Shown here one piece after another: positions 12,456-26,395 of a DNA stretch of 64,000 nucleotides. The translations under genes were made by a program, and so were the position numbers. The stretch is from Zygosaccharomyces rouxii (lineage: Eukaryota; Ascomycota; Saccharomycetes; Saccharomycetales; Saccharomycetaceae), in assembly GCF_000026365.1 (NCBI RefSeq), contig NC_012994.1, positions 496,001 to 560,000 of the forward strand. Direction: 5' to 3'. Position 1 is the first letter of the stretch; each line of letters begins with the position of its first letter. The notes under the pieces are model-generated. The model was given only the letters and a program-made list of their open reading frames with translations. It searched no databases and was not told the origin of the DNA.

Positions 12456-14729
12456 TTAGTAAAAGCCTCTTGAAGCCTGAGAAGTGTAGTCGTAACCAGT
12501 GTAACCATATGGCAAGCCTTGCTGAGCGGCGGCAGCGGCGGCGGCGGCAGCAGCAGCTTGTTGCTGTTGTTGGAATTGATAGTACTGTTGGAATTGCAAC
12601 TGTTGTGGGTTCAAAGGTTGTTGACCGTTTTGCAGTTGATTCTGTTGAGTTGGTTGAGATTGTTGTTGAACATCTTCACCCTGTTGGGATGGTGAGTGAC
12701 CGGGACTTTGTTGACCTTGTTGAACATTTCTACCTTGGGTTTGTCTCTGTGGTTGGTAGTAGTTGTAACCAGCCTTTGGCACTTGGTATGGATATTGACC
12801 AGCCATGCCGTATTGAGGTTGAGCATAAGGGAAGGATTGTTGGTAGAAATGAGCATAGTAAGGTAAGAAAGAACCACCATATGGTTGTTGTTGTTGTGGT
12901 TGAGCGTGACCAGCAACAGGTGAAGCCGTAGCAGTACTTGCGGTTGTCATGTCAGCGGCAGGTGCAGCTGCATAACCTTGTGGAATACTGTATTGACTTG
13001 CAGTACCAGTGCCAAAACCTGCTTGAGCAGATGGTTGTGATGGTTGTTGATAAGCTTGTTGCTGACCGTAGGCGTAACTTGGAGAATCAAACATACCTGG
13101 ATAAGTGTATCCAGGGAATTGATTTTGATACATGTAGTACTGTTGTTGAGCAGCAGTGGCAGCAGCGGCAGCATTTGCATTTGCACTTGCATTTGCGTTT
13201 GCGTTTGGTTGACCAACTGCAGCCTGTTGACCAGACAATTGCTGTGGAGCATGTTGAGGGGTCTGGCTTTGAGCGTACTGCTGTTGTTGAGCAAAGTACT
13301 GCTGCTGTTGTTGCTGCTGTTGCTGCTGTTGTTGCTGGTAGTAAGCCTCTTGTTGTTGTTGTTGCTGTGGTTTACCGGCTTCAACACCAACAGTTGGCTG
13401 TTGTTGTTGTTGCTTTACTTTAGAACCATCGTTGACTTCAGTAGCAACTGCCTGAGCAGTTTGAGAAGGTTCTTGTGGTTCAGAAGTGGCTGCCACTTCT
13501 TGTTCATCAATTTGTACTTGGTTACTAGTAATTTCTCTGGTGTCCTTTTGTTCTTCTGGTCTGTTGTGTTGTGCAGTGTCCTCTTGATTTGTACCCTGAG
13601 ATTGGAATTCAATTGGACTCTGGTCTTGTTGTTGTGTTTGTTGTTGTTCTTGTTGTTGTGCTTGTAGTTGTTCCTGTTGTTGTTGTTGTTGTTCTGATAA
13701 TTTAGAGGCAGTATCTTCATGTTGAGCATCGGCCTTCTTGCCCTGGTTGTTAGTTGCCTTATCATTTGTCTCTGAAACGGGTTCCCTCTGTGCCTGGCCC
13801 GCGGCGGGAGTCTCAGTTTCCTTTGCAACTTCATTGATCTCTTTCTTGAGACCACCCACATTGTTTAGTGATGATTGCTTCTTTTGAACTACCTTTGGTT
13901 TTGGTGCTGCTATGGCAGCCCAAGACATCTTTTTAGGTTTTTCATTATGTGCTGCATTGCCTGTCGAAGCAGTAGCTGTTGCATGAGTAGAACTTTGTGC
14001 CGTGCTAGTAGCTGAAGCTGAAGCCTCTACGCCATCAGTCTTAGTCTCAGATGCCTGTACCGTTGTCGCTGATGGTTCTTCTGGCGAACTCTCTGGTCGT
14101 TGCTGTTGCTGATCTTCCTCTTCCTCTTCTTCTTGTTGATGCTTTTTAGAATCGGAAGATGCCACTGCCGCCCAGGAACCACCGCCCGATGCAGGCTTCC
14201 CGCGAGAAATCGCTGCCCTTGCATTATCGGATGGCAACGATGGTTTACCGTTTTGTTGTTGTTGTTGTTGCTGTTGTTGCTTTTTACTCTTTGCATTACT
14301 ACCACCACTACTACTGTGAGTACCATTATTATCCCTGGAATACCTAGAACCCGAACCTTGTCCTGCCTTTGTATGATGATGTGAGCTGCTACCACCATGG
14401 TGTCCATCCAGGTCTTGTGCATGATAATGTTGTTGTTGTAGTTGGTGTTGCTGCTGTTCCTTTTGCAGCTGCTGTTGTTGCTCTAGTCGTTTTTCTAGTC
14501 TTTCCTTTTTAGATGGTTTCTTTACTTCGTCCCACCTAGTCACAGCACCAGATGTAATCTTATCAATTATTGTTTCCAAATCATCATATTCATGAACCAA
14601 ATCAATTAGATCGTCATTGGTCCAGTCAGGAAACAGTTCTGTTAGAGTCTCTAATTTGAATTTGATTTCTGGATTTACCCTCGAGTTCTTTCCGTTATGA
14701 CTATTTGATTTCCTAGATTGCGCCGACAT
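12456..14729 (-). CDS. DEF1: Def1, RNA polymerase II degradation factor
   Basis: This 757-residue protein promotes ubiquitin-dependent removal of stalled RNA polymerase II. A CUE ubiquitin-binding domain lies at about residues 20-65 (FKLETLTELFPDWTNDDLID). Next come a disordered Ser/Gln/Glu-rich middle and a very Gln-rich C-terminal half. The C-terminal half has several uninterrupted polyQ runs and, near residue 725, a polyAla run of about a dozen residues following QQQQQ. The Sc protein is cytoplasmic and is activated by proteasomal removal of its Q-rich C-terminus. The CAG/CAA (CTG/TTG on plus strand) tracts make this region prone to length change. It corresponds to YKL054C. Confidence 0.95.
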   Translation of the reverse strand: MSAQSRKSNSHNGKNSRVNPEIKFKLETLTELFPDWTNDDLIDLVHEYDDLETIIDKITSGAVTRWDEVKKPSKKERLEKRLEQQQQLQKEQQQHQLQQQHYHAQDLDGHHGGSSSHHHTKAGQGSGSRYSRDNNGTHSSSGGSNAKSKKQQQQQQQQQNGKPSLPSDNARAAISRGKPASGGGSWAAVASSDSKKHQQEEEEEEDQQQQRPESSPEEPSATTVQASETKTDGVEASASATSTAQSSTHATATASTGNAAHNEKPKKMSWAAIAAPKPKVVQKKQSSLNNVGGLKKEINEVAKETETPAAGQAQREPVSETNDKATNNQGKKADAQHEDTASKLSEQQQQQQEQLQAQQQEQQQTQQQDQSPIEFQSQGTNQEDTAQHNRPEEQKDTREITSNQVQIDEQEVAATSEPQEPSQTAQAVATEVNDGSKVKQQQQQPTVGVEAGKPQQQQQQEAYYQQQQQQQQQQQQQYFAQQQQYAQSQTPQHAPQQLSGQQAAVGQPNANANASANANAAAAATAAQQQYYMYQNQFPGYTYPGMFDSPSYAYGQQQAYQQPSQPSAQAGFGTGTASQYSIPQGYAAAPAADMTTASTATASPVAGHAQPQQQQPYGGSFLPYYAHFYQQSFPYAQPQYGMAGQYPYQVPKAGYNYYQPQRQTQGRNVQQGQQSPGHSPSQQGEDVQQQSQPTQQNQLQNGQQPLNPQQLQFQQYYQFQQQQQAAAAAAAAAAAQQGLPYGYTGYDYTSQASRGFY

Positions 14730-15611: not shown

Positions 15612-15869
15612 CTAATCCTCATCCTTAATGGCACCTCCTTCCTCGAAGGGCGCTTCCTTACGAGCCTCATCGAGGGCAGGCTTTATGCCCTGCTTAATGA
15701 GATGGGCATCAACACAGGCTGTATAGCTGTACCACTGTTCAGAACATTCGTTTTCAACGGATTTACCCTTGAGGAATTTCTCACTATACCATTCGTTAAA
15801 GCAGTCGTCGTATTTTTTCTTTAATTCAGTGCATTCAGGTGCAAAACTAGCCGACATTACGTTACCCAT
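15612..15869 (-). CDS. MDM35: Mdm35, twin CX9C intermembrane-space protein
   Basis: This 85-residue protein starts [16 protein letters not shown] and carries two perfect CX9C motifs (C13-C23 and C52-C62), the substrate pattern of the Mia40 import pathway. Mdm35 partners the Ups1/Ups2 lipid-transfer proteins that move phosphatidic acid and phosphatidylserine in the mitochondrial intermembrane space. The open frame continues 11 codons further upstream to a GTG at 15902, but the ATG at 15869 gives the family N-terminus. Orthologous to Sc YKL053C-A, it is the last gene of the first synteny block. Confidence 0.96.
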
Positions 15870-17128
15870 TCTATTTAAAAAGCACGACTTACTTAGGCTC
15901 ACTCGGTCTGGCTTCGCTTTACGATCATTGCCGGTTTTCTTGCAATGGTAGAAAAGAAGAGGATCAACATACTGTCTTGAGCCGGGTAAATCCCGTGGGA
16001 AACAAAATAAACCAGGATCACATGACTTTGATATCCGGTACTGGGTCCCGTTGTTTCACGATGACAGGGATGAAACACGATAGCCTCGCAACTTGCCGCT
16101 GAGCTCCAGCGAGTACATCTACTCTGGAGCTGCACCCTCAAATGCTCGTATGGTACCAACCTCAACTGTATTTTGCTATTGTGTTACCCCATTGTGGCAC
16201 CATTGTTTCACTACTGCAATGAAACAGTAACTCCGCCCTTCTCAGGCTCAGCGGCAAGACTTCGGCCTTCACACTGCCTTACACCAAGAACTTTCGATCG
16301 CTACTCGCTGCGAGTATGTGTTGCACCCCACGGTCTCTGTATACCCCGCAGACCCCAATTCGGCGGCTCGCTCAGATCTCTCCTCGACTCCCTACTCTCC
16401 CTTATTCATGTGACAGAATTCCCCGACCCCATCCCCATCTCCATCCCCTTTCGTCCCAGCTGACAAATCCCTTTCGGACATTACCCAATCGACATTCGAA
16501 AAAAAAAATGCGCGATGCCGTATATCATCATCCCCTCATATGCACAACAGCAGAAAAAAAGAAAGGGCCAGCCGCTAAAAGCCGTACTTCCTTTCTTCTC
16601 CGTTACCTCCCTATGTGCCCAAAGGTAAACAGACGAAACTTGCCTGATACTTATTAATGCGAATAGCTCATCACAGGGGTTTAAGAGGGATAAAAGCCAT
16701 ACCTCGGGTACACACACTTACATGGTACATGAAATACATGACATAGAAAAGGCAAAACGGTAAAAATCACCAGTCTCTCTCCGTTATTGCCGCTACTACC
16801 TGCCGCTAGTCTCGCTGTTTTAAGCCTATACATAGAAGCAAGATATATCACCGACTTGTCCGTGAACAATCACATTTTGTAAACAAGCGCTTACTAGCTT
16901 ACTACCGACAATCCTCTACACCCTCTCGTTTAGTATAAAACTCTCCCGCGTAAAACTGAAAAAAAAAAAGACGCTACCACGGCAATTTCTGAGAACGCCA
17001 AGAAAATAATCTCGGGCCTTGCGCTATTCGATGACAGTTACATATAAAAGAACAAGGCCAGGAACCCATCGCTAGGCATTACATAGAAACGGAGAAAATT
17101 AATAGAGAACTAAGGAATAACAAGCAGT
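15870..17128. other. Long intergenic region between MDM35 and the sphingolipid desaturase
   Basis: 1259 bp between divergent genes. It contains a Reb1-type site (CCGGGTAA, 15983-15990), four TGAAACA elements (separate entry), and a C-rich stretch on the plus strand at about 16320-16460 with repeated CCCCATC-like units. CCCCT stress-element motifs lie near 16445 and 16532. TATA-like elements lie near 16934 (TATAAAAC) and 17044 (TATAAAAG); the latter is about 85 bp upstream of the desaturase ATG. Frames of 60-113 codons exist in the C-rich part, but none looks like a protein. Confidence 0.55.
16052..16226. promoter_or_regulatory. Two inverted pairs of TGAAACA (Ste12-type pheromone response elements)
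   Basis: TGTTTCA at 16052-16058 faces TGAAACA at 16071-16077, with a 12-nt spacer. A second TGTTTCA at 16204-16210 faces TGAAACA at 16220-16226, with a 9-nt spacer. TGAAACA is the core Ste12 pheromone response element in Sc. Four exact copies in 175 bp, in two convergent pairs, is unlikely by chance. The target gene (MDM35, 183-357 bp away, or the desaturase, about 0.9-1.1 kb away) cannot be decided from sequence. Confidence 0.5.
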
Positions 17129-18325
17129 ATGACAACCATAACGCATAGAGGACTGGAAATTAGGACAGATGAGATGGAAGTACCAGAGGCAACAGCGCCT
17201 CTAGACGTGCTACACAACTATTACTGGGTTTCTACCAAGGAGCCACATGCGATAAGGAGAAAAGCCATTTTAAAGGCACATCCCGAAGTCAAAAAATTAA
17301 TGGGACATGAACCATTAACCAAATATCTTGCTACAATTGTAGTGTTAACACAACTAGGTATCGCTTACTATTTGCGTAGTGGTCACAGTTGGTTGAAGAC
17401 GGTTTTTTTAGCATACGTGATTGGAGCAACTTTGACGAATAACATGTATTTGGCAGTTCATGAAATTACGCATAATTTAGCATTCAAAAAGCCATTGTAC
17501 AACAAAATGTTTGCAATTTTCGTCAATACCCCGGTGCCGCTTCCCTACGCGGCAGATTTCGGCCCCTACCACCAACTACACCACAAATTTCTAGGCGATG
17601 AGCTTTACGATACAGATATACCCACAGAGTTTGAAGCGAAATTTTTGAAGGGCCGCGTGGGGAAATTTTTTTTCGTCTTATTCCAAGCACTATTCTTTGC
17701 CTTAAGACCAATGTTTGTGGTCGCCATCTCTTTGACTAACTTCCACATTGCAAATATCACTTATCAGATTGTGGTTGACATCCTTTGGATTCGTTATTTC
17801 GGAATTCAGTCATTCCTTTATCTTGGATTCTCCAGTCTTTTAGCAGGTTCGTTTCATCCATTGTCTGGTCATTTCATTGCCGAACACTTTCTTTTCGACA
17901 TTGACGAAGCGTTAAAAGGCGGTAAAGAAACTTTCAAGTATACAAATGGTGAAGAACAGCAATACTCCGAAGCACAGAAGAATGAGCTAGAAAGTATAAG
18001 ACCGGAAGTTGAGTTTAAAAGGGAATATGCATTAGAAACTTACTCTTACTACGGAATTTTAAACCTCTTTGTATGGAATGCAGGTCTTCACAACGAACAT
18101 CATGATTTCCCATTTATCCCATGGTCAAGACTTTGGGCTTTGCACAATATGGCACCAGAATTTTATAAACCACTACCAAGACACGAATCTTGGTGTAAGG
18201 CAATCTTTGATTTCGTCTTCAGGGCAGATTTGAATTTTTACAGCAGAGTTAAAAGAGCAAATCCTCAAATAACCAAGGAGAAGGAACTAAAGAAACAGAA
18301 GGAAATGCAAAAATCGAAGTTTTAG
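17129..18325 (+). CDS. DES1: Sphingolipid (dihydroceramide) delta-4 desaturase
   Basis: This 398-residue membrane enzyme belongs to the DES/DEGS family, which inserts the 4,5-trans double bond in the long-chain base of dihydroceramide in the ER. The N-terminal family signature YYWVSTKEPHAIRRKAILKAHPEVKKLMG (written in parts: YYWVSTKEPHAIRR at 31-44, then HPEVKKLMG at 51-59) is present. All three histidine boxes that bind the di-iron centre are intact: HEITH 111-115, HQLHH 148-152, HNEHH 321-325. Hydrophobic segments lie near 65-82, 92-110, 180-200 and 206-240. The C-terminus is Lys-rich. Sc has no such enzyme; other fungi use it on the way to glucosylceramide. The gene lies at the junction of two conserved synteny blocks and next to two TSC3 copies. 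No glucosylceramide synthase or delta-8 desaturase is in the window. Confidence 0.95.
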   Translation: MTTITHRGLEIRTDEMEVPEATAPLDVLHNYYWVSTKEPHAIRRKAILKAHPEVKKLMGHEPLTKYLATIVVLTQLGIAYYLRSGHSWLKTVFLAYVIGATLTNNMYLAVHEITHNLAFKKPLYNKMFAIFVNTPVPLPYAADFGPYHQLHHKFLGDELYDTDIPTEFEAKFLKGRVGKFFFVLFQALFFALRPMFVVAISLTNFHIANITYQIVVDILWIRYFGIQSFLYLGFSSLLAGSFHPLSGHFIAEHFLFDIDEALKGGKETFKYTNGEEQQYSEAQKNELESIRPEVEFKREYALETYSYYGILNLFVWNAGLHNEHHDFPFIPWSRLWALHNMAPEFYKPLPRHESWCKAIFDFVFRADLNFYSRVKRANPQITKEKELKKQKEMQKSKF

Positions 18326-18438
18326 TTTGTTTTGTTTGTTTGAGATTTTAAAGCGCCCAATGATATGATGAAGATATAACCTAAGATAGTGAATTAATAT
18401 AATAATAAGTCCTAAGTAGTTAATGAATCGTTTGTACG

Positions 18439-18470
<32 letters not shown>

Positions 18471-18777
18471 CCATTTTTCCATTTTTCTTATTGCGCGTTC
18501 TCCAGATGTTCTCCGTATACTGATATGCGATGCATGCTATGAGGCTGGTATCATTAGAAACCCACAAGAGGGTTTAGCAATTAAACAATTATAAAATGTC
18601 ATCATTAATTTTCCTGGGTATATATCGATTCGTAGTAACATCACTTAATGTATTCCTTTGTCCCCTTACCATGCGCCAGTATCCTGACTCAAAGTAATTA
18701 TCATAAAATCAAATCATAAGGCCCGCCTATTGGTCTTTAATAAAGATTATCATTAGCTATCAATCGAACCTATCATG
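18326..18777. other. Convergent 3' region of the desaturase and first TSC3
   Basis: 452 bp without a gene. It contains an uninterrupted T30 tract at 18441-18470, the longest homopolymer in the window. The plus strand shows ATCGAACC near 18763, which is not part of a tRNA (no acceptor or A-box context). Confidence 0.5.
18441..18470. repeat. T30 homopolymer tract
   Basis: Thirty consecutive T on the plus strand, about 115 bp after the desaturase stop, in the convergent 3' region. Confidence 0.9.
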
Positions 18778-19011
18778 TCAAAGCAGTAGACAGTATTTGA
18801 CAATACCGAACAAACCGAGACTCACTATGGTAAGACAAAAAGTGTGCAACAAAAATGCGTCTCCTTGCGTGATGACATAGAATGGTAAGTGGATGTAATA
18901 GTTGAAAAAAGTTTTGTGTAGAATTTTGGACCACAGATTTACACGTTCGTTGAGACGTTTATTTCTTTGAGCATTGGTTTCCACATATTCCATGGTATGG
19001 CTAGCTGGCAT
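18778..19011 (-). CDS. TSC3: Tsc3-like small subunit of serine palmitoyltransferase, copy A
   Basis: This 77-residue single-pass membrane protein resembles Sc Tsc3 (YBR058C-A), which activates the Lcb1-Lcb2 serine palmitoyltransferase in the ER, the first step of sphingolipid synthesis. The family core is clear: a hydrophilic N-terminus, then YYIHLPFYVITQGDAFLLHT followed by LTIVSLGLFGIVKYC as the membrane helix. A gapless alignment with the second copy gives 43 of 77 identical residues by eye. The gene next in order after the second copy is AKL1, as in Sc, so this is the native TSC3 locus with a tandem duplication. It is convergent with the desaturase. Which copy is ancestral cannot be told. 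Confidence 0.9.
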   Translation of the reverse strand: MPASHTMEYVETNAQRNKRLNERVNLWSKILHKTFFNYYIHLPFYVITQGDAFLLHTFCLTIVSLGLFGIVKYCLLL

Positions 19012-19663
19012 AACGATTGTATAATTTGTATTTTACCGTGGGTATTGTAGCGATCGATTCTGGATAAAGGGAGAAGAAGGAGGTGTAGAAAAAAAAAAAA
19101 AAAACTAAAAAAAAATGTCAAAGGAATGAGTCTATTGGAAGAAGTAAGGCGGTCGTAACAAGGAAGCCCTTAATTGATCACTATTTCCAGTATATCGAAA
19201 GTTTTAGTCTGTTTGTCTGTTATGTACTTTGTTATGTAGCTTCTAAGTTCAATTCAAGCTAAGCGAGGCAAAAATTTTTATAGAGTCATAAGTTAGGAAG
19301 CAGACCTTTCGAAAACAGACAGAACGACAAAAACAACAACATTTTATTATTTATAATCTCGTTTAATTTAATTTAATTTAATTTAATTTAATTTTTTATT
19401 GCTCTGCATCGCATCGCATTACTTTACACCATAATGTATGCTATTCTCCTAATGTCATATGTAATTATTCAATGGTAGCGTTTAAGCAGACGAATAGACG
19501 ATATCGTTATCCCCAGATTATTAGCCGCTAGCCGACATGGCTGATAAAAAGAATACTTGAACTGTCTTATCTAATCCGATTTTTCTTAAATTTTTCATCC
19601 CTTCTTGTTTTATTCTATTTTCTTATATTACAGACTTTCTTCACCCATATCAATTCCTCTTAA
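19012..19663. other. Intergenic between the two TSC3 copies
   Basis: 652 bp forming the promoter of copy A and the 3' flank of copy B. It contains a pentanucleotide array of TTTAA, six units at 19362-19391, followed by GCATC repeats near 19406-19417. An A/T-rich run with A16-type tracts lies near 19087. No further gene was found. The sequence just upstream of copy A shares short blocks (ATTTTACCG, GGTATTGTAG) with that upstream of copy B, a trace of the duplication. Confidence 0.5.
19362..19391. repeat. TTTAA pentanucleotide tandem repeat
   Basis: Six perfect units of TTTAA in the promoter of the first TSC3 copy. Confidence 0.9.
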
Positions 19664-19897
19664 CTAAAATAAAATGCAGTATTTAACCACACCAAACACA
19701 CCAAGACTCATTAGCGTTAAGAAAAAAGTGTGGAGCCAAAATGCGTCTAATTTTGTCAAACCGTAAAATGGTAAATGGACATAGTAGGCCCAGTACGTTC
19801 TGCGTAAGAATTGAGCAACAGGATTTGGATAAATATTCAATCGTTGTGAACGCTGGGCGCTCGTTTCCACATAATACATCGTACTGCGGGAAGTCAT
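19664..19897 (-). CDS. TSC3: Tsc3-like small subunit of serine palmitoyltransferase, copy B
   Basis: A second 77-residue Tsc3-like protein. The core reads YYVHLPFYGLTKLDAFWLHT followed by LTLMSLGVFGVVKYC, and the N-terminus (MTSRSTMYYVETSAQR) is collinear with copy A (MPASHTMEYVETNAQR). The ATG at 19897 was chosen over an upstream in-frame TTG because it gives exactly the same length as copy A. Differences cluster in residues 22-37 and in the loop at 46-50, just before the membrane helix. In mammals, small subunits with small differences in the membrane region change the acyl-CoA preference of serine palmitoyltransferase, so divergence here may have functional meaning (inference). Confidence 0.9.
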   Translation of the reverse strand: MTSRSTMYYVETSAQRSQRLNIYPNPVAQFLRRTYWAYYVHLPFYGLTKLDAFWLHTFFLTLMSLGVFGVVKYCILF

Positions 19898-20730: not shown

Positions 20731-23700
20731 TTATTCCTTTTTCTTATCAGGTCCTCTAAAGACAGAAAAAATTGATCTTCTCTTCGCTGATAAGGCTGCT
20801 TCTCCCTTTACTGCCTCCTTACGAATCTTTTCAAGATCTAAGGATTGGCGTGCTTTAGCAAATGACCTTCTCACTTCTCCACCACCGCTTCCGCTTGCTG
20901 GACCACTAGCGTTAACGCTAGTATTGCTGCTATTCTTGTGTGCATTCTTATACCTGTCTAAGTCGTTGTTTTGCAGTGATGGGGGTGATCCGGAGCTGGC
21001 ATTGGTACCGGCATTAGAACTTGTTCCGCCCGCGTTAGCGCTGCCACTACCTGCGCTTGTACCATTATTAGTAGTATTGTTATTGTTGTTACTGTTACTG
21101 TTATTGTTGTTACTATTGTTGTTGTTGTTGTCGTTGTTACTGTTTGCATTGTTGTTGCTGTGCCTACGAATATCGCCATGCGGTCTTCTAGGTGGGTCAG
21201 CTACATCTTGTCTCCTTGTCGCTTCTTTTGTCGGTGGTCTTTGGGTTTCTGGCGATGAAAAATGAACCTCTTGATACTTTAAATCTAGTGATCGACGTAA
21301 GCTTCCGGTACTCGAATCGATGGTTTGACGAATGGGTTTTTCAGGTGGTTGGGTCAATTTCTCATTGCTCGCCGGTGGTTGTTGAGTTCTATCTCTTTCT
21401 CTTCTTGCATCATCTAGATCAATTTGAATACTTTCACTCGACGCCGTACTACTTACTGTACTCGCAGAATCGAATGTATCGCGTTTTATATGTGATATTG
21501 GCTTTGGTGGGTCGTTGGAGTTTAGATCGAATTCGTCGTAGCTTAAATCCAAGTTTTTACTCGGAGTTCTCTCTAATTGGGGTGAATCCGTTTTTGGTCT
21601 ATGATCACTGCCGCCTCTTTTATGCAATGATTGCTTTAAATCTAGACCGTCATGACTTTGGTAATCCTGCCATGTCTTCGGATGTGGTGGTTTTGGCGGT
21701 GGATTCTCCGGTGGCTGTACTAAATCAGATGAATCAACGGTAGTTGCATGTTGAGGTAGTTGTCTAACTTGTTCCACCGGCGGCTGTTGTTGTTGTTGTT
21801 GTTGATGATGATGCTGTGGTGCAGGTACAAACCCCTGTTTTGCTTGTTGTTGTGATGGCAAAGGTCTTGGCACCTGTTGTTGTGGTTGCTGTTGTAAAGC
21901 AATTTGTGACATGGGATTCTGAGCTGACAACGAAGCATTTGGTCCCACAGAAGGGGATGGATAATAAGGCGAGGTACCAGATTGAGGTTGCTGTGGAGGC
22001 ACTTGATAGTTAAATCTCATGTGTGATTGTGGTTGAGGTACATCAGAAATCTTTTTAAGTGGAATTGGTTGTGCTTGTCCCTGTACAGATACTGGTGAAT
22101 CCACATGTTGGTAAAACATATTTTGATTAAAATTCATTTTTGGTTGAGCCTGTGGTACGGGGCCCACCTGTGGTAATTGCGGTTGTGGTTGTGAAATAGT
22201 GAATTGAGAGTCATCAGCTGGCGAGTGGGCATCCACAAAATATTCAGGTCTACTACCAAGTTCAGGCTGAATTGAAATTGGAGTTCCTCTAGGGGCAACG
22301 TTAACACCACCAGCGCCCCCGGGGAGCGCACCAGCGTTACCAGGAATTGGCATCGGACCAGGTGCCTGAGGAACAGGAGCAGCAGGAGCCACCGGAGCAG
22401 CTCCCATTGGTGTACCTGAAGATGACAACGGTCCTGGTTGTCCCTGACCGAATCCTTGAGCCATCATGGGAAAAGGATTATTGGATTTATGCTGTTTAAT
22501 AATACCTGGAGATTGTTCCGACCTTGCTGTTTGTTCAACGGCTAATATATCCGAATATTTAACATCTTGTATTGGCGGACCACCTGATAAGGATTTACCT
22601 GAGGAGTATGAACTCATACTCCTTTGATTTGGCGGGCTGAAATGTGAATCTCTATCTGTCATAGAAACAGACGCAAATTGTTTAGGTTCAGCATCTAAAT
22701 TAGCATCTGATTCATTTTCAAATTCATTACTTGGCAGATTTTTTCTACTTGCACTTGATGGATTTCTTGAAGGTTTTGTACTTGAAAAAACACTTTTCCT
22801 ATGATCTGAAAATTCATCGGAGGAACTAACACTTTCCTTTGACTTCATTGGCTGCTGTTGTTGTTGTTGTTGTAGTTGTTGTTGATGTAGACCAACTTCC
22901 GCTGGAATCTTGGAGGAAACTTCAAAAGATGTAATTAGTAAATCGTTCAAAAGTTTCTCTTCCACTGCATTGAGACGTCCATTATTTTCCAGTTTCTTTT
23001 GTTGCAATAGATACATTTGATATTGAACGTTTTGTAATTTAGTTTGAAATTCTGTGTATTTTTCAAAATTGTAAGGTCCTAACCCATATTTATCTTCAAT
23101 AGGGACTTCACAACCAATGACGCTACAGATGTGATGCATGACTTGATATATGTTTGGTCTCACATATGGATTTTCCGCTAACATGATAATAATCAGATTG
23201 ATCAATTTGGATGAATATTTATTAGCTGGAAATTCATATTTGGAATGTAAAATGGAAAATTGACCAGTCATTTCAAAAGGTGTAATAAAAAAAAGCAATT
23301 TGTAAAGGAAGATTCCCAGTGCCCATATATCAGATTTTTCATTAATGGGCAAACATCTATAAAGATCTATCATTTCTGGTGACCTGTACTGAGGAGTCGT
23401 ATTCACATAGATGTTTTGAGTTAAAATGGCAATGTCTTGATGCGTTGTCACTAATGGGAAACATGTTGATGTTGATCCAAAGTCACATAGTTTAAAATTG
23501 TTCTGGGCATCTACCAACACATTTTCAATCTTAATATCCCTATGGATCAAAGGTATCGGCAAATAATGCATTTGAGAAATTGCCAAAGTCGTATCGTACA
23601 TGACCTTTAAAATCTCCTTTTCTGTCAATCTGGTAGCTAACCTTTGGTTCATATAATCTAAAAGAGAATTATTCGGGCACAATTCCATTAGCAGTAAAAC

Positions 23701-24078
23701 CTCATAACCAACTTGCCCGGAAGTTCTTCTACTCGCATTCGAATCGTAGTACTGTATGATAGCCTTGGCTCCTCTTAACTGCTTCATCACTTCCACTTCA
23801 TTTCTCATTTCCGAAAGTCCATTTTCATCAGGTACCAATACCCTCTTCAGACATGCAATGTCCCCAGGTTGAAGTGGCGCCTTGCTACCATTATTAAATT
23901 CACCCAAAAATTTGATGTATTTCACCGAATAAATCTGGGCAAATCCACCTTCAGCAATAAAACTTATTATTTCCACCTGTTGATTCCCCACAGCTACAAC
24001 AGTACCCGGGGCGTACCCGTCCACTACTGGCTTAGTCACAGATGATGCCGTCTTTGCAGCATCACTAGTGGCAGGCAT
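20731..24078 (-). CDS. AKL1: Akl1, Ark/Prk-family serine-threonine kinase
   Basis: This 1115-residue kinase belongs to the Ark1/Prk1/Akl1 (NAK) family that regulates actin patches and endocytosis. The kinase domain occupies about residues 25-305, with the Gly-rich loop IAEGGFAQIYSVKY, the catalytic LIHRDIKIENVL and DFGST. The rest is a disordered Pro/Gln/Ser-rich tail with polyQ near residue 400. A Pro/Met-rich segment spans about 560-740, and an Asn-rich run of mixed N and S lies near 1020-1050. The tail ends in a basic segment (KEAVKGEAALSAKRRSIFSVF). The frame opens with TTG at 24117; the ATG at 24078 fits the Sc protein start. Its position between TSC3 and ORC2 matches YBR059C. Confidence 0.95.
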   Translation of the reverse strand: MPATSDAAKTASSVTKPVVDGYAPGTVVAVGNQQVEIISFIAEGGFAQIYSVKYIKFLGEFNNGSKAPLQPGDIACLKRVLVPDENGLSEMRNEVEVMKQLRGAKAIIQYYDSNASRRTSGQVGYEVLLLMELCPNNSLLDYMNQRLATRLTEKEILKVMYDTTLAISQMHYLPIPLIHRDIKIENVLVDAQNNFKLCDFGSTSTCFPLVTTHQDIAILTQNIYVNTTPQYRSPEMIDLYRCLPINEKSDIWALGIFLYKLLFFITPFEMTGQFSILHSKYEFPANKYSSKLINLIIIMLAENPYVRPNIYQVMHHICSVIGCEVPIEDKYGLGPYNFEKYTEFQTKLQNVQYQMYLLQQKKLENNGRLNAVEEKLLNDLLITSFEVSSKIPAEVGLHQQQLQQQQQQQPMKSKESVSSSDEFSDHRKSVFSSTKPSRNPSSASRKNLPSNEFENESDANLDAEPKQFASVSMTDRDSHFSPPNQRSMSSYSSGKSLSGGPPIQDVKYSDILAVEQTARSEQSPGIIKQHKSNNPFPMMAQGFGQGQPGPLSSSGTPMGAAPVAPAAPVPQAPGPMPIPGNAGALPGGAGGVNVAPRGTPISIQPELGSRPEYFVDAHSPADDSQFTISQPQPQLPQVGPVPQAQPKMNFNQNMFYQHVDSPVSVQGQAQPIPLKKISDVPQPQSHMRFNYQVPPQQPQSGTSPYYPSPSVGPNASLSAQNPMSQIALQQQPQQQVPRPLPSQQQAKQGFVPAPQHHHQQQQQQQPPVEQVRQLPQHATTVDSSDLVQPPENPPPKPPHPKTWQDYQSHDGLDLKQSLHKRGGSDHRPKTDSPQLERTPSKNLDLSYDEFDLNSNDPPKPISHIKRDTFDSASTVSSTASSESIQIDLDDARRERDRTQQPPASNEKLTQPPEKPIRQTIDSSTGSLRRSLDLKYQEVHFSSPETQRPPTKEATRRQDVADPPRRPHGDIRRHSNNNANSNNDNNNNNSNNNNSNSNNNNNTTNNGTSAGSGSANAGGTSSNAGTNASSGSPPSLQNNDLDRYKNAHKNSSNTSVNASGPASGSGGGEVRRSFAKARQSLDLEKIRKEAVKGEAALSAKRRSIFSVFRGPDKKKE

Positions 24079-24583: not shown

Positions 24584-26395
24584 TCATATGCTTTGCATTA
24601 CTGTTGATAACAACTTGTTTATCTCTGAGTAATTGTAAGGAATCCAAACGTGTTCCGTACCCGCTGGATTCTTTGAGATGGCGGCCATCTTATGTTCAAC
24701 AAATTCCGTAAGCATGCTTCTCAAAGAAATTTCATTACTCGCGACGAATTCTGCTGAACACAGATGTAGAAGCTGCTTTAGTTCTACGCCCACTGTCGGC
24801 GATCCACGCTTCGTTGGCGGTACTTGGCCTCTAGCGTTTGATGCATGCGAGTTCATATTAGAGATTTGTGTCTCTAATAGAACCTTGTACATTCTCTTCG
24901 TGTTGTGCGTTAGAGATTCTAACACGAATTTAGCACCTTCAGCACCGCTTGCAGAGTTGTTTCTATTCATCTTCATAACGTCTTTGAACGATGATTCTAC
25001 CGCTAATGGTTCGTAATTGGAAACATCGTGAAAAACAAAGTTGTAATTTTGGGCTTTGAAATTATCCCATAGAATGGGAGCATAAATATGATCCGTGGAT
25101 GCTACGAGGGCGACTTGTCGTATCAGTGCCAAATAGCATAACATCGTTTGGAAATTGTCCTTTCTTAGACTTGGTCCATCTAAATTGTGAATTACAATAA
25201 CTAGTTTAATGTCCGGTGGTTCATTTTTGTAAAGTTCAATCATTTTTTGAATTTGCAAAATTACGTGGTTCCCCCAATACTTGGTCTCATTTCGACTTAG
25301 TTCCTGTGGTAAGAGCGCCCGTGAAATATCCTTAAAGACGTCTCTGTAATTACACGTCGGATTGTACCCATTAACAACCACACATGGAACCCCCACACTG
25401 CTTTCGTCAGAAACCAGATTAGGAGCAAGGTATTCAAATACGTATCTTTCCAAAAATTCTCTTTTAGAACCTACCCCATAGAATAAAAGTGAAAAACCTT
25501 GAGTTAATTCAAACCAGTATTGTGGAAACAACCTAGTTTGAATTTCATAGAGTCCATCACGGGCGGCTCTGTGTAGTTTTCCGTGAAACGTATTAGAAAT
25601 TAATGCAAATTCTTCTCTAGTGACATCTGTTGCCATACTCATGGTGTTCTTAGATTTCTGACTACCACGCAATTGCTTCCTTTGATCAAAATATCCTTCA
25701 AAAGTATCGAAAAATGAACTCATCGATTTATCCGTCGTAGTCGGTACATATTTTTCCTTGGCAGTTGGCAATGGGGTGGGGACGAAATTTCTACTCAATT
25801 TTAGATTTTCACTCGATGCTGTATTCTTGTATTCATCCAAATTGCTTAAAATGACTTTTTTCAATGGTGATGTAAAGTCATGCTCCGTACTCAAAGTCTT
25901 CTTGGGCGTTTTCTTCTGAGGAGTAGTTGTTATAGATACTTCATTTTCACTCTCAGTAGTCTTTACGGGACTGGCCAACACGGGAATTGGAGTTTCTGAT
26001 CTAGACGGCAGTCTCCGATGGCGCTTGTTCTCCCTATCTAATTTATCTTCTTCATCTCCATTGGATACGTAGGCGTCACCACCATCGTCATTATTATCTT
26101 CTTCCTCTTCTTTATCATCATTTTGAGACTTCGTCCTGCGAGACTCACTGCGTTTTCTTTTACCAATTGGTGATTCTGACGATGATAGATCGGAGGACTC
26201 TTGCCAAATGCCGCCAGGAGTTGGACTCCTTTCAATTCTTTCCAATAAATTCTTCTTCGGAGATCTCTTTCGATCAAGTCCATCTGGAACCGGAGTAGAT
26301 CTCCTCTTAGAGACTACACGGCAAGTAACTTTACCTCTTGCCTTAGAAGGTGACGATAATATATCGACATGCTTAACGATACCGTCATCAGACAT
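24584..26395 (-). CDS. ORC2: Orc2, origin recognition complex subunit 2
   Basis: This 603-residue protein has a disordered, charged N-terminal third with many SP/TP sites (for example RSPTPGG, STPVPD), probable CDK targets that in Sc help prevent re-replication. The conserved C-terminal ORC2 domain follows, including LLFYGVGSKREFLERYVFEYL and VVNGYNPTCNYRDVFKDI, a degenerate AAA+-like fold, and the C-terminal winged-helix region. It acts at replication origins in the nucleus. The frame opens with TTG two codons upstream; the ATG at 26395 was chosen. It is the ortholog of YBR060C. Confidence 0.96.
   Translation of the reverse strand: MSDDGIVKHVDILSSPSKARGKVTCRVVSKRRSTPVPDGLDRKRSPKKNLLERIERSPTPGGIWQESSDLSSSESPIGKRKRSESRRTKSQNDDKEEEEDNNDDGGDAYVSNGDEEDKLDRENKRHRRLPSRSETPIPVLASPVKTTESENEVSITTTPQKKTPKKTLSTEHDFTSPLKKVILSNLDEYKNTASSENLKLSRNFVPTPLPTAKEKYVPTTTDKSMSSFFDTFEGYFDQRKQLRGSQKSKNTMSMATDVTREEFALISNTFHGKLHRAARDGLYEIQTRLFPQYWFELTQGFSLLFYGVGSKREFLERYVFEYLAPNLVSDESSVGVPCVVVNGYNPTCNYRDVFKDISRALLPQELSRNETKYWGNHVILQIQKMIELYKNEPPDIKLVIVIHNLDGPSLRKDNFQTMLCYLALIRQVALVASTDHIYAPILWDNFKAQNYNFVFHDVSNYEPLAVESSFKDVMKMNRNNSASGAEGAKFVLESLTHNTKRMYKVLLETQISNMNSHASNARGQVPPTKRGSPTVGVELKQLLHLCSAEFVASNEISLRSMLTEFVEHKMAAISKNPAGTEHVWIPYNYSEINKLLSTVMQSI

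What the first reader, a model, noticed from the sequence alone, without database searches (positions are those of the whole stretch)
17129..19897. Sphingolipid mini-cluster: delta-4 desaturase beside two serine palmitoyltransferase small-subunit genes
Seen: a desaturase with all three His boxes of the DES/DEGS family lies directly next to two Tsc3-like genes. Known: serine palmitoyltransferase starts long-chain-base synthesis, and DES acts on the ceramide made from that base; Sc has no DES gene and only one TSC3. TSC3 followed by AKL1 and ORC2 is the conserved arrangement, so the desaturase is the newcomer or a relic lost elsewhere. Inference: the cluster may tune supply of a particular acyl-CoA-derived base for unsaturated ceramide, perhaps leading to glucosylceramide. 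I cannot recall this linkage being described.
Basis: partly seen in the sequence, partly recalled or inferred. Interest (0 to 1): 0.75.

Follow-up and report, generated by a model that had tools for sequence, protein, structure and literature searches.

The report
Ancestral yeast desaturase–TSC3 gene neighbourhood
A yeast close to Zygosaccharomyces rouxii keeps an old sphingolipid desaturase beside the gene for a small helper of sphingolipid synthesis; the pairing looks inherited rather than new, but here the helper gene is doubled and the enzymes that usually use the desaturase's product were not found in the genome.

Summary
17129-18325(+) encodes an intact sphingolipid delta-4 desaturase (DES). 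18778-19011(-) and 19664-19897(-) encode two Tsc3-like serine palmitoyltransferase (SPT) small subunits, the only two found in the genome. AKL1 and ORC2 follow.

The reading as a functional mini-cluster is mostly not supported. The DES tree fits vertical inheritance. In 6 of 6 Lachancea/Eremothecium species with both locus tags listed, exactly one gene number lies between DES and AKL1. DES-[TSC3]-AKL1 is thus most likely ancestral order (that the middle gene is TSC3 is inferred). DES and the nearer TSC3 are convergent, so they share no promoter.

Glucosylceramide as end product is contradicted. Genome searches found no GT21 glucosyltransferase, no delta-8 desaturase, no C9-methyltransferase candidate, and one Lag1-type ceramide synthase.

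What remains is modest but real. DES appears orphaned but keeps its catalytic residues; it has diverged faster in this lineage than the AKL1 kinase domain. It probably makes sphingosine-type ceramide for inositol-phosphoceramide. Two old Tsc3 paralogues under purifying selection serve what looks like one Lcb1/Lcb2 pair. They differ in the loop matching the acyl-CoA-selecting Met of human ssSPTa. Function is inferred, not shown.

The parts
17129..18325 (+). Sphingolipid delta-4 (dihydroceramide) desaturase, DES family, 398 aa, intact
   Evidence: Pfam PF08557 and PF00487 above cut-off; three His boxes kept; window differs at 7 of 95 columns that are at least 97% conserved in 115 relatives outside its clade; one copy in genome
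18778..19011 (-). TSC3-like SPT small subunit, copy A, 77 aa, next to DES
   Evidence: 8c80_D (yeast TSC3) E 3.1e-16; genome search
19664..19897 (-). TSC3-like SPT small subunit, copy B, 77 aa, next to AKL1
   Evidence: 8c80_D E 1.5e-18; close relatives P0121, P0122 and Z. rouxii ZYGR_0P02690
20731..24078 (-). AKL1-like kinase, 1115 aa; syntenic anchor
   Evidence: homologues named AKL1 in several yeasts
24584..26395 (-). ORC2; syntenic anchor
   Evidence: Pfam PF04084 and PF24882
15612..15869 (-). MDM35-like protein, left neighbour, divergent from DES
   Evidence: Pfam PF05254; the name MDM35 is recalled

Best explanation
The locus is an inherited gene neighbourhood, not a newly built cluster. 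The Saccharomycetaceae ancestor had DES, one gene (most likely TSC3) and AKL1 in a row. S. cerevisiae kept TSC3-AKL1 and lost DES. The window's yeast kept both and doubled TSC3. DES probably still puts a 4,5-trans double bond into dihydroceramide at the ER. With no glucosylceramide pathway found, its product most likely goes to inositol-phosphoceramide by the IPC synthase, or stays as a minor ceramide or sphingosine pool. The two Tsc3 proteins probably both activate the one Lcb1/Lcb2 enzyme as alternative subunits. Shown: gene identities, copy numbers, residues, searches without hits, tag spacing. Inferred: that the middle gene in relatives is TSC3, the reaction, the fate of the product, and subunit exchange.
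For: DES membership and intact catalytic residues. Tree: window and four unnamed sequences form a 100/100 clade inside a 100/99 group of 20 rows with Lachancea, Eremothecium and Saccharomycodes, apart from 15 other fungal rows. Locus tags: DES/AKL1 pairs LAMI_0C05490g/05446g, LANO_0A03114g/03070g, LADA_0B06766g/06722g, LALA0_S02e08504g/08460g, AGR025W/AGR027C, Ecym_2648/2650: one number between in 6 of 6; a tag step of 22 per gene is recalled. Two unnamed pairs share a contig length, 19302 (P0013/P0158) and 144696 (P0018/P0170). The W and C letters of AGR025W/AGR027C match the strands here. Genome: GT21 0 hits; GT2-type hits are two chitin synthases and one 342-aa ALG5-like protein; FA_desaturase 3 hits, namely an OLE1-like, a delta-12-like and DES; six CMAS hits, the best with Sterol_MT_C, so ERG6, the other five named by eye as ordinary methyltransferases. 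One Lcb2 and one Lcb1 identified, one Orm, an AUR1-sized PAP2_3 protein. S. cerevisiae turns sphingosine ceramide into IPC (PMC4647206, passages). Tsc3 copies: 43 of 77 residues identical, dN 0.35 with dS saturated.
Against: No relative's DNA was available, so TSC3 as the middle gene was not seen. The glucosylceramide-pathway misses rest on Pfam models and were not tested with a fungal positive control; the controls run were prokaryotes. Introns could hide a gene from the six-frame search. No lipid data. A review table lists Zygosaccharomyces as having GlcCer (PMC12942302); the species behind this in PMC4190384 are Z. cidri and Z. fermentati, now Lachancea.
Confidence: 0.75

Rival explanations
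1. Functional mini-cluster: DES and two Tsc3 copies are kept together by selection because the Tsc3 isoforms feed DES with a particular dihydrosphingosine chain length.
For: The DES-one gene-AKL1 spacing is retained in 6 of 6 species with tags, and the two Tsc3 copies differ in the loop matching the ssSPTa selectivity Met.
Against: S. cerevisiae keeps TSC3-AKL1 without DES. DES and the nearer TSC3 are convergent. A scan for seven recalled promoter motifs showed no motif common to all three genes. Neighbouring AKL1 and ORC2 have no known tie to this step, so conserved order alone explains the linkage.
Confidence: 0.1
2. DES has changed role after loss of the glucosylceramide pathway, for example to a bifunctional desaturase/C4-hydroxylase or a supplier of sphingosine signals under osmotic stress.
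For: Window-to-KLE distance over KLE inter-genus distance is 1.65 for DES against 1.12 for the AKL1 kinase domain; the clade's stem is 0.54; the clade shares V110, V136 and P137 where other rows have I, I and G in at least 98%. S. pombe Dsd1 gave both sphingosine and phytosphingosine products in S. cerevisiae (PMC4647206, passages).
Against: One control gene only. Most deviations at conserved columns are conservative and the His boxes are unchanged. Relaxed constraint gives the same rate signal.
Confidence: 0.2
3. Recent horizontal arrival of DES next to TSC3.
For: Its absence from S. cerevisiae (stated in PMC4647206).
Against: Tree position within the Saccharomycetaceae rows and conserved spacing to AKL1 in relatives.
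Confidence: 0.02

Closest known systems
Sphingolipid delta-4 (dihydroceramide) desaturase, DES/DEGS family; nearest named members from Lachancea and Eremothecium
   Same: Lipid_DES and FA_desaturase domains, three His boxes, 54 to 58% identity to Lachancea and Eremothecium members
   Different: Here no other enzyme of the glucosylceramide branch was found in the genome, whereas A. gossypii is annotated with delta-8 desaturase, ceramide glucosyltransferase and a cyclopropane-synthetase-type methyltransferase (PMC4190384, passages)
Yeast Tsc3, SPT small subunit (8c80_D)
   Same: 28 columns invariant over four aligned sequences including Sc Tsc3; same two-helix region and N-terminal M-x-Y motif
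   Different: Two tandem paralogues, 43 of 77 identical, with VITQGD and GLTKLD where S. cerevisiae has LMASFD
Human ssSPTa/ssSPTb
   Same: Two alternative small subunits for one Lcb2-type partner
   Different: Origin by a separate duplication (inferred); a chain-length effect is shown for ssSPTs, while Sc Tsc3 is reported to affect amino-acid choice (PMC10550967, passages)
S. pombe Dsd1
   Same: A yeast DES; absence of glucosylceramide synthase in S. pombe is recalled, not checked
   Different: Bifunctional desaturase/hydroxylase when expressed in S. cerevisiae (PMC4647206); not tested here

Membership tests
Sphingolipid delta-4 desaturase (DES) | N-terminal Lipid_DES domain followed by FA_desaturase domain | tested here: met
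   PF08557 at 29-63 and PF00487 at 88-347, both over cut-off
Sphingolipid delta-4 desaturase (DES) | Three His boxes HExxHN, HxxHH, HNEHHD | tested here: met
   residues 111, 148, 321; all boxes in 119 of 120 aligned rows, P0045 being the exception
Sphingolipid delta-4 desaturase (DES) | Groups with DES members of related fungi | tested here: met
   tree of window and 34 of the 120 listed relatives
Sphingolipid delta-4 desaturase (DES) | 4E desaturation of dihydroceramide | not testable with these tools
   needs lipid analysis
Tsc3 | Sequence match to yeast Tsc3 over most of its length | tested here: met
   copy A residues 6-76, copy B residues 4-76
Tsc3 | Pfam SPT_ssu-like PF11779 over its cut-off | tested here: not met
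   17.8 against 29.8 bits for B, not listed for A; S. cerevisiae Tsc3 itself was not scanned, so the model may simply not cover Tsc3
Tsc3 | Position beside AKL1 | tested here: met
   copy B precedes AKL1 in the window; S. cerevisiae order recalled
Tsc3 | Binds Lcb2 and raises SPT activity | not testable with these tools
   needs pull-down and assay
Fungal glucosylceramide pathway | Glucosylceramide synthase (CAZy GT21) | tested here: not met
   PF13506 0 hits in genome; PF13641 hits are chitin synthases and an ALG5-like protein
Fungal glucosylceramide pathway | Delta-8 sphingolipid desaturase with N-terminal cytochrome b5 | tested here: not met
   3 FA_desaturase hits, none of that build; 10 cytochrome b5 hits, of which the long frames L022, L025 and L028 were scanned and carry no desaturase domain
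Fungal glucosylceramide pathway | C9-methyltransferase (CMAS type) | tested here: not met
   6 PF02353 hits: ERG6 (Sterol_MT_C) and five others that look like COQ3, HMT1, BUD23, TGS1 and DIM1 by eye
Conserved functional cluster | Linkage shared by relatives beyond general gene order, or shared promoter | tested here: inconclusive
   Linkage to AKL1 shared by 6 of 6 species with both tags, but no shared promoter and no relatives' DNA to test unlinking

The most novel reading that the evidence does not exclude
In this yeast lineage the glucosylceramide branch was lost but its first enzyme was kept and retuned: DES makes sphingosine-based inositol-phosphoceramide (or a sphingosine signal), while two Tsc3 isoforms compete for one Lcb1/Lcb2 pair and set which base is made, a fungal parallel to human ssSPTa/ssSPTb.
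Probability: 0.2. Interest if true: 0.6.

Novelty: new variant of a known kind. Interest (0 to 1): 0.35.

Why it matters
The linkage itself is ordinary ancestral synteny. If the rest is true, a delta-4 desaturase survives without the pathway it is normally tied to, and a fungus carries two SPT small subunits for one catalytic pair. Both can be tested by gene deletion and lipid analysis in a tractable salt- and sugar-tolerant yeast, and would show what DES does outside glucosylceramide synthesis.

Tried and rejected
Horizontal arrival of DES: rejected on the tree and tag spacing. Route to glucosylceramide: rejected on genome searches, with the caveats given. More TSC3 copies elsewhere: none found. 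Two Lcb2 partners for two Tsc3 copies: only one Lcb2 and one Lcb1 recognised among the 9 PF00155 hits; 5 of these 9 were looked at as frames (L042-L046) and 2 of 9 searched against solved structures; the other 4 have frames of 412-469 aa, shorter than LCB genes. Recent tandem duplication: rejected, DNA similarity is confined to a 112-base stretch of the coding region (75%) and dS is saturated.

Led nowhere: the copy B homologue search gave 3 proteins only, all close kin, so the age of the duplication across species is unknown; copy A was not searched. The one named NCBI hit there, ZYGR_0P02690, is 66 aa and diverges at its C-terminus. Promoter motif scan showed no motif shared by all three genes; motifs were recalled. 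Structure prediction of DES gave mean pLDDT 78.5, and Foldseek against PDB gave one match at E up to 0.001 (8xks_K, TM 0.48, rmsd 11.9) and alkane monooxygenase AlkB at E 0.1: weak, not used. NCBIfam scan gave nothing for DES. No PDB sequence match for DES. Of ten paper searches, no listing or passage that I saw described a DES-TSC3 linkage or a TSC3 duplication; two searches returned no paper. The library is open-access only.

Rows dropped: P0019 (a 658-aa oomycete protein) was left out, which used 119 of the 120 listed relatives; the tree used 34 of 120, alignment A2 45 of 120, and the rate comparison 8 relatives having both genes. Homologue lists show the best 120 of 2801 and of 2036. Of 7 DES records with locus tags, L. 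fermentati had no AKL1 tag in the list and could not be paired.

Full report
What is there. The window holds DES at 17129-18325(+), two TSC3-like genes at 18778-19011(-) (copy A) and 19664-19897(-) (copy B), AKL1 at 20731-24078(-) and ORC2 at 24584-26395(-). DES has both DES-family Pfam domains over cut-off. The Tsc3 copies match solved yeast Tsc3 at E 3.1e-16 (A) and 1.5e-18 (B) but not the Pfam small-subunit model at cut-off.

Which organism. The window is 64 kb of contig 5 of a genome of 9,764,635 bases in 7 contigs. Copy B's relatives include a 66-aa protein of Z. rouxii, 96% identical over 64% of the query; the Z. bailii AKL1 is 58% identical. PMC3141009 (passages) reports one centromere loss in Z. 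rouxii. That this fits Z. rouxii, with seven chromosomes and about 9.8 Mb, is recalled. I treat the species as Z. rouxii or very close.

DES is intact and alone. All three His boxes are present. Of 95 columns conserved at 97% or more in 115 relatives outside its clade, the window differs at 7, among them I110V, I136V and G137P, which all five members of its clade share. Genome searches find one DES and three FA_desaturase genes in all; the other two are an OLE1-like protein with C-terminal cytochrome b5 and a delta-12-type desaturase, named by eye.

DES is old here. In a tree of the window and 34 of the 120 listed relatives, the window sits with four unnamed sequences (100/100), inside a group of 20 rows (100/99) with Lachancea, Eremothecium and Saccharomycodes, apart from 15 rows of other fungi. 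The fork joining it to the Lachancea, Kluyveromyces-like and Eremothecium rows is only 88/89.

The linkage is old too. Seven DES records carry locus tags; for six of these species one search lists the AKL1 tag: L. mirantina 05490/05446, L. nothofagi 03114/03070, L. dasiensis 06766/06722, L. lanzarotensis 08504/08460 (each differing by 44, two steps of 22; the step is recalled), E. gossypii AGR025W/AGR027C and E. cymbalariae 2648/2650. One number lies between in 6 of 6. Contig lengths agree for five of these pairs; for E. gossypii the longest contigs listed differ (1823962 and 1800949). Two unnamed pairs also share contig lengths. The middle gene is most likely TSC3, since TSC3 adjoins AKL1 in S. 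cerevisiae (recalled) and here; I could not read it. So the adjacency needs no special selection. DES and copy A are convergent and share no promoter; a scan for recalled motifs found none common to the three genes.

No glucosylceramide branch was found. GT21: 0 hits. GT2-type search: two chitin synthases and one ALG5-like protein. Delta-8 desaturase: none among 3 desaturase hits, nor in the three long cytochrome b5 frames scanned, two of which are lactate-dehydrogenase type. CMAS: six hits, ERG6 by its sterol methyltransferase domain and five others by eye. TLC: one 421-aa Lag1-like protein and two of 275 and 291 aa that I take for other TLC proteins by eye. Controls for these models were prokaryote genomes, so sensitivity for fungal genes was not proved. 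By contrast A. gossypii is annotated with delta-8 desaturase and ceramide glucosyltransferase (PMC4190384, passages). A 2026 review lists Zygosaccharomyces as having GlcCer (PMC12942302, passages), but the species named in PMC4190384, Z. cidri and Z. fermentati, are now Lachancea.

Likely fate of the product. PMC4647206 (passages) reports that S. cerevisiae converts sphingosine-containing ceramide to IPC. The window's genome has a PAP2_3 protein of AUR1 size. IPC is therefore the likeliest sink. Z. bailii complex sphingolipids are high (PMC3762712, passages), but no 4-ene bases are mentioned in what I saw.

Rate. The mean Kimura distance from window to eight Lachancea, Eremothecium and related sequences, divided by the mean between those genera, is 1.65 for DES and 1.12 for the AKL1 kinase domain. 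This suggests altered or relaxed constraint in this lineage; there is one control gene only.

The Tsc3 pair. The copies share 43 of 77 residues; dN is 0.35 and dS saturated, in the last 50 codons dN 0.28 and dS 2.6, so both have been under purifying selection. Their DNA similarity is confined to coding sequence, so the duplication is not recent. One Lcb2 (8c80_C, E 0) and one Lcb1 (8c82_B, E 3.8e-238) were recognised and one Orm. [quoted passage not shown] At that place copy A has I and copy B has L, in loops VITQGD and GLTKLD. Different effects on SPT are possible, not shown.

Verdict. Observation confirmed; cluster reading mostly ordinary synteny; glucosylceramide link contradicted; an apparently orphaned DES and a Tsc3 pair are the part worth testing.

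Noticed in passing
15612-17129: DES lies where two S. cerevisiae gene-order blocks meet: MDM35, DEF1, OAR1, TMA19, NUP120 (chromosome XI, recalled) on the left and TSC3, AKL1, ORC2 (chromosome II, recalled) on the right, so a rearrangement breakpoint may sit beside it in one of the lineages.
   Followed up: no
L034: Only one Orm gene was found in the genome, whereas S. cerevisiae has Orm1 and Orm2.
   Followed up: no
12456-14729: DEF1-like protein with very long glutamine-rich runs; AKL1 here also has long Gln and Asn runs.
   Followed up: no
18440-18472: A T run of roughly 30 bases lies between DES and copy A.
   Followed up: no
P0123 (ZYGR_0P02690): The annotated Z. rouxii copy B is 66 aa and departs from the window protein after about 48 residues, perhaps a wrongly placed intron in that annotation.
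   Followed up: no
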